Shown: positions 27,655 to 29,133 of the stretch, piece by piece
Position numbering within the stretch: the stretch's first letter is position 1
Layout: every line of letters starts with the position of its first letter
Assembly (NCBI GenBank): GCA_963854835.1
Contig: OY978526.1
Span: 24,024,334-24,088,333, forward strand
Reading direction: 5' to 3'
From: Megamerina dolium
Lineage: Eukaryota; Arthropoda; Insecta; Diptera; Megamerinidae
Length of the DNA: 64,000 nt
The notes under the pieces: model-generated
Database searches by the model: none
What the model was told of the DNA's origin: nothing
What the model saw: the letters and a program-made list of their open reading frames with translations, nothing else
Program-made: the position numbers and the translations under genes

Positions 27655-29133
27655 TTAATTTGAAGCATGCTGCACCCGTAAATCCAGTACGTATGATTGT
27701 GGTGGGTGTTCTAAACCGGGAGAAGCACACACAGCTGTAAGGGTCGTTATCGATTCACGTTGTGCAGCAGAGTCTTGGATACTCTCTGAGGTAGCCAATG
27801 GTATAGTGTGTATTAATCCAGGTTCTTGCGATAAAGTACGTCGATGCATACGTAAATCCAGTGCGCATGGTGGTGATGGTGTTGTGGATCTGAAACTGGT
27901 AGGAGCACAAGGAGCCGTATGGGTTGTCATTGATTCACGCTCATGCAGATCTCCATTTATGCATTCGATATTGTTGGAAACTTTCTCAACAGTGATATGT
28001 TCGAGACTTTCGTTAGTCGCCGATGGTGCAGACGGTAGTACTATAGGCACATACGTTGGTGGTACTGATGTGAAATCAACAGAGGTATGAGGAGCTGCAG
28101 GAATCGGCATTGCTTTAGCGTTTATTTTCATGCCAACTTCGAAACATCTTTTCAAGCGACATGATTTACACTTCTTGCGTCGCGTACAATCAATTCTACA
28201 TTGATCTGGAAAATTTGCAGTGCATATGTAGGGTTTTGGTGAGTGTGCGTATCTTGAAAAAAACTGTCTGCAAGCATTACATGTATAAGCTCCATTGTTC
28301 CTTCCCGAGCAGTGATCGTTACAAACCGCACAACGCATATTGTGTAAAACACTAACTAAAAGAGATTTAACATAATGCTTTTAGTTCACAAATATTGAAA
28401 ATTTTCGGCAAATGTCGTACCTTGTGTACGAGGCTTACTCTGCATTCCAACTTCAAAACACCTTTTTAAACGACATGATTTACAATTGTTACGCGATGTA
28501 CTATCAATTATACATTCATCTCGAATATTCCCATTGCATACGTAGGGTTTTGGTGAGTGTGCGTATTTTGAGAAAAACATTCCACAAGCATCACATGTAT
28601 AAGCTCCATAGTTCGTTCCCGAGCAGTGATCGTTACAAACCGCACAACGCATATTGTGTAAAACACTATCTAAAAGAGATTTAACATAATGCTTTTAGTT
28701 CACAAATATTGAAAAATTGCGGCAAATGTCGTACCTTGTGTACGAGGCTTACTCTGCATTCCAACTTTAAAACACCTTTTTAAACGACATGATGGACATT
28801 GTTTACGTGATGTGCTATCAATTATACATTGATTTGGAATAATCTCATTACATTTGTAGATTATTTTCGATTTTTGGCAACGCCTGAAAAATTCTCTACA
28901 AGGATTACATGTATAAACACCATAGTGCACTCCTGTGTGGCGATCTTGGCAAACCCGGCAGAGAGTGTCGGATAATATTGGACCTGAAAGGAATAAGCAC
29001 GATTTTTTGAGTGCACAGATATGTAAAAATTATAATATCGTTTGCCGAGTGTAAGAGATATTATTGCATAACGGTAGTACTTACTTGACGTCGATAATTG
29101 TGATATGTTGTCATTTTTATCTGAATTCTGCAT
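27655..29133 (-). CDS. Gene F: nuclear receptor-like protein with three intact tandem DBDs and no LBD
   Basis: Model: exons 29133-29085 (49 nt), 28983-28735 (249), 28669-28421 (249) and 28355-27655 (701); introns 101, 65 and 65 bp, GT/AG, all phase 1; 415 aa with no stop. Ligands: DBD1 C25/28/42/45 and C61/69/79/82; DBD2 C108/111/125/128 and C144/152/162/165; DBD3 C191/194/208/211 and C227/235/245/248. All 24 cysteines are present and all second fingers are C-x7-C as in tailless. P-boxes differ: CNPCREFF, CDACGMFF, CNACRQFF. The tail (about 258-415) is Ser/Thr/Pro-rich with ATNESLEH and ATSESIQDS repeats and lacks an LBD. It probably binds DNA in the nucleus. The alternative is mutually exclusive splicing of interchangeable DBD exons. 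I am sure of the exons, less of how they are joined. Confidence 0.8.

What the first reader, a model, noticed from the sequence alone, without database searches (positions are those of the whole stretch)
27655..29133. A nuclear receptor-like gene with three intact tandem DNA-binding domains
Seen: four exons with GT/AG junctions, all phase 1, give one 415-codon frame with three C4 DBDs and all 24 zinc ligands. Known: receptors normally have one DBD; two-DBD receptors are reported from flatworms, molluscs and crustaceans. Inference: three DBDs in one insect protein is new as far as I know, and could read a composite site of three half-sites.
Basis: partly seen in the sequence, partly recalled or inferred. 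Interest (0 to 1): 0.93.

Follow-up and report, generated by a model that had tools for sequence, protein, structure and literature searches.

The report
Nuclear-receptor genes carrying DNA-binding-domain arrays
The fly gene really does encode three hormone-receptor-type DNA-binding domains in a row, and it sits in a large, fast-changing family of copies of the gene tailless that carry from one to six such domains whose DNA-reading residues have changed unusually fast, so the copies may read many different DNA sequences.

Summary
In detail: four phase-1 exons (29133-27655, minus) give 415 codons with three complete C4 DBDs. But the gene is not a singleton. It lies in a cluster of about 0.38 Mb beside a full-length tailless (tll, NR2E2) gene of a fly. 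In about 308 kb examined I count 55 loci, tll included; 21 carry two or more DBD units, up to six. Descent from tll rests on a DBD tree (support 99), shared intron phase, promoter stretch and position. A 99%-identical paralogue has four DBDs; another four-DBD gene keeps a ligand-binding domain; none was found near this gene. Arrays probably grew by unequal exchange. DNA-contact residues 19, 20, 22, 23, 26 show omega 3.5 and 1.8 (p=2e-7, 0.003) against 0.95 and 0.57 elsewhere; a tree-free count agrees. Most likely these are modular readers of varied half-site combinations, diversifying as KRAB zinc fingers do. Expression, binding and targets are untested; 22 of 70 A-type units are broken or partial. 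Predicted proteins with three and five zf-C4 domains exist elsewhere.

The parts
29085..29133 (-). Exon 1 of the three-DBD gene (ATG, MQNSDKNDNISQLSTS), donor GTAAGT
   Evidence: a similar exon 1 was found at 20 of the 22 A-type genes modelled, this one included (one more has a changed sixth base, one has no such ATG in the stretch)
28735..28983 (-). Exon 2: DBD1, helix residues N19 P20 R22 E23 R26
   Evidence: zf-C4 83 bits
28421..28669 (-). Exon 3: DBD2, helix residues D19 A20 G22 M23 S26; mosaic of exon-4-like 5' part and exon-2-like 3' part
   Evidence: (71.8 bits); fold
27655..28355 (-). Exon 4: DBD3 (N19 A20 R22 Q23 S26) plus C-terminal tail with two LDLR motifs, no ligand-binding domain
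   Evidence: (62.3 bits)
28670..28734 (-). 65-nt intron between DBD1 and DBD2; differs from the next intron at two bases
28356..28420 (-). 65-nt intron between DBD2 and DBD3
29305..29375 (-). Putative core-promoter stretch, 83% identical over 72 columns to the stretch upstream of tailless (L008)
978..1941 (+). Two-unit paralogue (units 978-1151 and 1291-1464; first unit lost Cys37)
5697..5870 (-). Type C single DBD (CKACAIFFQR)
22204..22375 (-). Frame-broken A-type DBD
34210..35340 (+). Type B tll-like paralogue with DBD (6th zinc Cys missing) and LBD
37888..38851 (+). Two-unit paralogue with the same two DBD protein sequences as 978-1941
42574..42738 (-). Degenerate A-type DBD
46388..46936 (-). 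Type C paralogue, one DBD
50916..51074 (-). Partial A-type DBD
51383..52078 (-). One-DBD A-type paralogue
55859..57127 (+). Second type B paralogue
63521..64000 (+). Start of the six-DBD paralogue (exon 1 and DBD1 in the window; DBDs 2-6 continue in L030; 625-aa frame)

Best explanation
The gene is one member of a young, tandemly amplified family derived from the nuclear receptor tailless. SHOWN BY SEQUENCE: duplicated tll copies lie beside tll; genes of the family hold 1-6 DBD units made of a DBD exon plus a short intron; in this gene no LBD is found; the zinc scaffold is kept in most copies while the DNA-contacting residues of the recognition helix changed faster than synonymous sites. INFERRED: the units multiplied by unequal exchange; the exons are spliced together constitutively; each DBD docks on its own half-site, so covalent linkage replaces LBD-driven dimerisation. 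The protein would then read a composite of unlike half-sites whose combination is altered by swapping, adding or losing units. It probably acts as a repressor, as Tll does, perhaps through the LDLR motifs kept from the tll hinge. The selection pattern resembles that of KRAB and FiNZ zinc-finger families, so the driver is most likely a genomic conflict with changing DNA targets such as transposons or satellites. That last step is the least certain.
For: Model and domains; fold. Cluster: 90 of 120 zf-C4 matches lie in C2:23.79-24.17 Mb; 150 of 165 candidates were scored; 55 loci, 21 with two or more units, 13 of these with all units holding eight Cys, up to six. Origin from tll: L008 is by far the best match to a fly tll, 60%, 490 bits, residues 26-438; next full-length match 42%, 284 bits; cluster plus tll clade, support 98 and 99, the second with an NR2E3-like receptor outside it; promoter stretch shared; same phase-1 intron position before the DBD, read by eye in tll. 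Unequal exchange; our gene (3 DBDs) and L029 (4 DBDs) are 99.5% and 99.4% identical upstream and in the tail. LBD retained in one four-DBD gene, none found near this gene. Zinc scaffold: 48 of 70 A-type and 9 of 11 type C units keep all eight cysteines. Selection: contact omega 3.46 (n=15 first DBDs, p=2e-7) and 1.82 (n=19 later DBDs, p=0.003), three DBDs from broken loci left out, 3.94 and 2.35, 15 disjoint pairs, contact pN/pS 3.09 vs 0.97 at like pS (0.050, 0.056), Fisher p=0.036; 24 distinct five-residue combinations in 34 unique DBDs. Specificity role of residues 19 and 22 in NR2E receptors: PMC2225407, passages. All 24 junctions checked keep at least one in-phase donor.
Against: No expression, splicing or binding data. 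Outside the contact residues the 58-codon DBD of intact loci is above or near neutral (omega 1.60, p=5e-4, for first; 0.84, p=0.1, for later); in first DBDs sites 2, 8, 11 and 56 also exceed 1; the C-terminal tail has omega 0.57-1.41. So part of the signal could be relaxed constraint or selection not aimed at DNA contact. 22 of 70 A-type units carry lesions or are partial. My codon tests fix branch lengths from a global fit and ignore recombination between units; the helix pattern slid by three columns gives the same omega. The specificity switch by residue 19 was context-dependent: it worked in NHR-67 but not in the reverse direction in FAX-1. Nothing links the family to transposons except analogy.
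Confidence: 0.6

Rival explanations
1. Decaying duplicates: a segmental-duplication hotspot beside tll spawned copies that are mostly non-functional; extra DBDs and P-box changes are drift under relaxed constraint.
For: 22 of 70 A-type units are broken or partial; omega near or above 1 in much of the DBD of intact loci and in the tail; large copies 94-99.6% identical show recent duplication.
Against: Drift gives omega 1, not 1.8-3.9 at the recognition helix; synonymous change is alike in contact and other codons; 48 of 70 A-type units keep all eight ligands; six in-phase introns and 625 open codons in the six-DBD gene.
Confidence: 0.19
2. Cassette exons: the DBD exons are alternatives, and a transcript uses one (or a few), giving single-DBD receptors of different specificity.
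For: All junctions are phase 1, so any choice keeps the frame; introns are very short (65 nt).
Against: 65-83 nt introns are spliceable in flies (recalled); in type C gene 24127350 two DBDs lie in one open frame of one exon; in the four-DBD LBD gene DBD3 and DBD4 share an open frame.
Confidence: 0.12
3. Competitors of Tailless or of other receptors: LBD-less multi-DBD proteins occupy tll-type sites or titrate partners, and the arrays act by avidity on ordinary NR sites.
For: tll-like promoter stretch kept; no LBD here.
Against: The tll P-box CDGCAGFFKR is not kept in any array unit listed; residues that set NR2E half-site choice are among those changed.
Confidence: 0.07
4. Assembly or haplotype artefact: collapsed or duplicated reads created the arrays.
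For: Very similar tandem units.
Against: No N in the roughly 308 kb fetched; units and flanks carry distinct substitutions; 500 Mb in 8 contigs; two forms of DBD doubling.
Confidence: 0.02

Closest known systems
Tailless, NR2E2 (fly tll; vertebrate NR2E1/TLX)
   Same: DBD clade (support 98 and 99), phase-1 intron before the DBD, promoter stretch, hinge motif VLDLRVQ, adjacent position; LBD kept in L008, type B and the four-DBD gene at 24117262
   Different: This gene has three DBDs, non-tll P-boxes and no LBD found
2DBD-NR subfamily (flatworms, rotifers, molluscs, annelids, echinoderms, amphioxus, nematodes and others; PMC10497141, passages)
   Same: Tandem C4 DBDs in one nuclear-receptor-type protein
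   Different: 2DBD-NRs have two DBDs plus an LBD and characteristic P-box pairs such as CEACKK-CEGCKG (highly variable in nematodes); here 1-6 DBDs in a family that groups with tll
KRAB / FiNZ C2H2 zinc-finger families (PMC10547256, abstract and opening of the introduction; many FiNZ-ZNFs under positive selection stated there)
   Same: Lineage-specific expansion, tandem DNA-reading units, adaptive change; proposed repressor role
   Different: C4 nuclear-receptor DBDs with half-sites of about 6 bp instead of C2H2 fingers; no KRAB/FiNZ box; no TE link shown
Knirps-type receptors without LBD (NR0A; recalled)
   Same: DBD-only receptor in flies
   Different: Groups with tll; several DBDs. No knirps-type DBD was in my trees
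Database proteins P0003 (3 zf-C4) and P0001 (5 zf-C4)
   Same: Three or more zf-C4 domains in one predicted protein
   Different: Only 27% and 26% identical in the aligned part, organism unknown, long stretches between DBDs

Membership tests
Nuclear receptor superfamily | C4 DBD (zf-C4) with eight cysteine ligands | tested here: met
   three zf-C4, 24 of 24 ligands
Nuclear receptor superfamily | Ligand-binding domain | tested here: not met
   This gene: no tblastn match of the tll hinge/LBD at E<=1e-3 between 24027283 and 24058887, i.e. around the gene. Paralogue at 24117262 does have it (PF00104 E 2e-10)
NR2E2 tailless lineage (by descent) | DBD groups with tll to the exclusion of other receptors | tested here: met
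   support 98, against eight other receptors of the genome; support 99, against ten, including an NR2E3-like one. A dsf-like receptor, its DBD split by an intron, and knirps-type receptors were not in the trees; where L008 and tll sit among the cluster types is unresolved (support 19)
NR2E2 tailless lineage (by descent) | Same intron phase before the DBD, shared promoter stretch, adjacent locus | tested here: met
   (by eye)
NR2E2 tailless (functional member) | P-box CDGCAGFFKR | tested here: not met
   CNPCREFFRR, CDACGMFFSK, CNACRQFFSR
2DBD-NR subfamily | Two DBDs followed by an LBD | tested here: not met
   three DBDs, no LBD
2DBD-NR subfamily | P-P module of the described groups (e.g. CEACKK-CEGCKG, LPCKS-EGCKK) | tested here: not met
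   against passages of PMC10497141; nematode modules are variable and were not compared
KZNF-like diversifying array (works like) | Variable number of tandem DNA-reading units in clustered genes | tested here: met
   1-6 units, 55 loci
KZNF-like diversifying array (works like) | Positive selection at DNA-contact residues | tested here: met
   contact residues assigned from PMC2225407 and recall (20, 23, 26)
KZNF-like diversifying array (works like) | Binds and silences transposons | not testable with these tools
   no expression or binding data

The most novel reading that the evidence does not exclude
A second animal invention of a KRAB-zinc-finger-like system: nuclear-receptor DNA-binding domains turned into expandable, shufflable arrays (one to six per protein so far), with recognition helices under diversifying selection, which evolve to recognise changing genomic targets such as transposons, satellites or driving elements.
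Probability: 0.35. Interest if true: 0.95.

Novelty: new variant of a known kind. Interest (0 to 1): 0.87.

Why it matters
Nuclear receptors are textbook one-DBD factors whose P-box is strongly conserved (recalled). Here the DBD is a repeat unit whose number differs between 99%-identical gene copies and whose DNA-contact residues evolve faster than neutral. If the proteins are made, this gives a natural library for the open question of how receptor DNA specificity evolves, a test of whether linked DBDs can replace dimerisation, and a case in which a key embryonic patterning gene (tailless) seeded a conflict-style gene family.

Tried and rejected
Knirps/knrl origin was my first guess for a DBD-only fly receptor; set aside once L008 proved to be tailless and the DBD trees grouped the cluster with tll. 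The knirps-type genes themselves were not put in the trees.

I considered that the downstream LBD-like frames (e.g. beyond the six-DBD gene, 24090632-24090997) are extra exons of the arrays. In the six-DBD gene a stop and a frame change separate them; the tail ends at the same place in 6 of 6 genes of that tail group; of 7 such LBD-like frames compared, 5 have stops and 2 have none, one of these only partly fetched. I treat them as severed. An unseen intron is not excluded.

Zinc-ligand conservation cannot be read, because that set was selected for eight cysteines; the unfiltered tally is: of 70 A-type units 48 keep all eight, 3 are full-length with a ligand lost, 15 are partial and 4 frame-broken. 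Several partial units are in frame but lack a ligand, so 48 of 51 would flatter the case. The HMM itself was built from eight-Cys DBDs.

Dropped before the selection tests: 30 of 80 HMM hits (incomplete, of another length, lacking a ligand, or tll itself), 8 type C DBDs, then 8 duplicates of 42 A-type DBDs, leaving 34 (15 first, 19 later). Searches used these 34 (15 disjoint pairs) and one search used 31. Searches used 69 codons, searches used 58. One search was an earlier fit (contact omega 3.52 and 1.93, p=2e-5 and 0.009). DBDs fetched later were not added.

The protein searches showed no close relative of the arrays; they are word-limited and one search listed 120 of 2120, so absence in other flies is not shown. 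Literature on this point: in the open PMC library only (one search listed 20 of 25, 10 of 24 papers); none of the titles or abstract openings listed reported nuclear receptors with three or more DBDs or a tailless expansion. Rfam found nothing in the window. The tll tree makes the species a brachyceran fly (99), probably cyclorrhaphan (87); I could not name it.

Full report
WHAT IS THERE. Exons 29133-29085, 28983-28735, 28669-28421 and 28355-27655 on the minus strand, joined in phase 1 across GT...AG introns, encode 415 residues. Pfam zf-C4 is found three times in the spliced protein, each DBD frame scoring far above the cut-off, and all 24 zinc ligands are present. AlphaFold2 gives DBD2 a confident fold (pLDDT 89.5) that matches RXR, TR4 and GR DBDs. 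The first two DBD exons end in two alternative in-phase donors 18 nt apart. Across 24 junctions of 12 multi-DBD genes, 16 keep both donors, 6 only the proximal, 2 only the distal and none has lost both (counted by me from the lines; one further junction was not reached because the script stopped; genes with broken units were not in this count, and some of the 12 are near-copies).

THE CLUSTER. A genome-wide zf-C4 search put the window at C2:24024334-24088333 of a 500.5-Mb, eight-contig genome and gave 120 matches, 90 of them between 23.79 and 24.17 Mb of the same contig. I fetched 200 kb in one block and selected pieces elsewhere; with the window this is about 308 kb without any N. An HMM of the cluster's own DBDs gave 89 units outside tll. 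Grouped by strand and distance under 700 bases they form 55 loci, tll counted. Type A: 17 loci with one unit (tll and two LBD-bearing tll-like genes included), 12 with two, 4 with three, 3 with four, 1 with six. Type B: 8 loci. Type C: 9 loci with one unit and one with two. So 21 loci carry two or more units, 13 of them with every unit holding all eight cysteines. The six-DBD gene begins in the last 480 bases of the window and runs as one 625-codon frame with six introns. A gene at 24117262 has four DBDs and a nuclear-receptor LBD in one 642-codon frame (PF00104 E 5e-10). In type C gene 24127350 two DBDs lie in a single open frame, apparently a separate doubling.

ORIGIN. L008, at the end of the cluster, is a complete tailless gene: DBD with P-box CDGCAGFFKR plus LBD. 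It is the best tll match of the genome (60% identity to a stalk-eyed-fly tll over residues 26-438, 490 bits); the next full-length one, at 23790467 in the cluster, has 42%. Cluster DBDs and five insect tll/NR2E1 proteins form one group, support 98, apart from eight other receptors of the same genome that I read as E75, ftz-f1, ERR, usp, HR38, HR78, EcR and HR96. With two more receptors added, one of them NR2E3-like, the group holds with support 99 and the NR2E3-like receptor falls just outside it (81). A dsf-like receptor with a split DBD (L050) and the knirps type could not be or were not included, and the branching of tll within the cluster is unresolved (support 19; types A and C together 70). 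The three-DBD gene shares with tll the phase-1 intron before the DBD (by eye) and an upstream stretch of 72 columns at 83% identity, including a TCATTC initiator-like stretch (initiator recalled).

HOW THE ARRAY GREW. Exon 3 and its flanks are a mosaic: the preceding intron and 5' half match exon 4 (95-98%), the 3' half and following intron match exon 2 (90-97%). That is the product expected from unequal exchange in a two-DBD gene. A paralogue (L029) is 99.5% identical upstream and 99.4% in the tail but has four DBDs. In the six-DBD gene, units 2 and 4 differ by 3 of 174 bases, two of which change residues 19 and 20 and one of which is silent.

SELECTION. I tested five recognition-helix positions (19, 20, 22, 23, 26 counted from the first cysteine). 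Residues 19 and 22 are established in this receptor class: changing Asp-19 to Asn switched NHR-67 from AAGTCA to AGGTCA (the reverse change in FAX-1 did not switch it), and residue 22 contacts half-site position 2 (PMC2225407, passages read). The other three were chosen from general knowledge of receptor-DNA contacts. Among 15 unique first DBDs the five sites have omega 3.46 (p=2e-7 against 1), the rest 0.95. Among 19 unique later DBDs they have 1.82 (p=0.003), the rest 0.57 (p=1e-12) (69 codons). Random five-site sets reached the same gain in 10 and 38 of 5000 draws. Site 23 alone gives omega 11 (LRT 40) in the later DBDs. In first DBDs sites 2, 8, 11 and 56 also exceed 1, site 8 most strongly (LRT 24.5). 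The five-site pattern slid by three columns reached the same omega (it still shares sites 22, 23 and 26), so the resolution is a helix and not five exact residues. Leaving out three DBDs from broken loci gives 3.94 and 2.35 (p=1e-7, 1e-4), but on the 58-codon DBD alone the rest is then 1.60 (p=5e-4) and 0.84 (p=0.1). A tree-free count over 15 disjoint closest pairs gives contact pN/pS 3.09 against 0.97 with like synonymous change (Fisher p=0.036). The 34 unique DBDs hold 24 different five-residue combinations. In this gene the three DBDs read N-P-R-E-R, D-A-G-M-S and N-A-R-Q-S, so different half-site preferences are predicted.

IS IT ALIVE? For: 48 of 70 A-type and 9 of 11 type C units keep all eight ligands; long multi-intron frames stay open; the helix shows the clearest excess of replacements. 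Against: 22 of 70 A-type units are broken or partial, tails evolve at omega 0.57-1.41, and much of the DBD of intact loci is not below 1. The picture is birth and death with some genes under positive selection. Around this gene no LBD was found. In several sister genes an LBD-like frame lies downstream behind a shared stop, with older constraint (omega 0.30-0.42 against tll or the four-DBD gene, except 0.53 for the diverged 23838 copy) but stops in 5 of 7 copies compared.

MECHANISM. Shown: anatomy, array variation, faster-than-neutral change at contact residues. Well supported: descent from tll and unequal exchange. Inferred: co-translation of the DBDs, one half-site per DBD, repression. The tail keeps two LDLR motifs; the second matches VLDLRVQ of tll and resembles corepressor (CtBP) motifs as I recall them, untested. 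Tll itself is called a committed repressor (PMC7536075, abstract opening in the listing). The parallel with zinc-finger families that evolve against transposons (PMC10547256, abstract and opening of the introduction) is analogy.

KNOWN OR NEW. Two-DBD receptors are a named subfamily with an LBD; the 2023 survey (passages) gives Nematoda as its ecdysozoan group, and the phrases three DBD and 3DBD do not occur in its main text. Six paper searches listed no report that I could see of nuclear receptors with three or more DBDs or of a tailless expansion; that library is open-access only and I saw titles and abstract openings. Predicted proteins with three and five zf-C4 domains exist from JGI and ENA sources (P0003, P0001), and two Glossina entries named tailless have two DBDs (two zf-C4 plus LBD for P0022), possibly fused models. 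Three DBDs as such are therefore not unique. A receptor family with exchangeable DBD arrays under diversifying selection is, within these searches, undescribed. On checking, I lowered the main confidence from 0.62 to 0.60 and the interest from 0.88 to 0.87, and raised the decay rival from 0.17 to 0.19, because the ligand tally is 48 of 70 and the rest of the DBD is not clearly constrained.

Noticed in passing
window 34210-35340 (+), 55859-57127 (+) and further copies: Type B tll-like genes keep an LBD, but in all 8 fetched copies one zinc-ligand cysteine of the second finger is missing.
   Followed up: partly
L035 797-1906 (C2:24127296-24128405): Type C gene with two DBDs and a repeated linker inside one open frame: DBD doubling apparently independent of the exon arrays.
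   Followed up: partly
L034 (C2:24116500-24119800): Four-DBD gene that still has an LBD, with 60-residue DBDs in three of four units; a possible intermediate.
   Followed up: partly
downstream of several A-type genes, e.g. C2:24090632-24090997, window 2350-2949: LBD-like frames behind a shared stop, 5 of 7 compared with stops of their own; whether any is spliced in is unresolved.
   Followed up: partly
P0022, P0023 (Glossina), P0043 and P0072 (Ceratitis): Database tailless entries with two DBDs (Glossina) and two differing tll-type proteins (Ceratitis): tll duplication may recur in flies.
   Followed up: no
P0001 (676 aa), P0003 (641 aa): Database proteins from ENA and JGI sources with five and three zf-C4 domains, organism unknown.
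   Followed up: partly
window 10686-15512 (+): Pao-type retrotransposon frames (Peptidase_A17, reverse transcriptase, DUF1759, DUF5641).
   Followed up: no
window 30954-31676 (+): Reverse-transcriptase fragment (PF00078), LINE-like by eye.
   Followed up: no
window 60664-61671 (-): 336-codon open frame that looks like a transposase by eye; no Pfam match at E<=0.001.
   Followed up: no
C2:23861544-23875510 and 23896156-23910123: 14-kb inverted duplicate, 99.1% identical, carrying three-DBD genes in mirror orientation.
   Followed up: no
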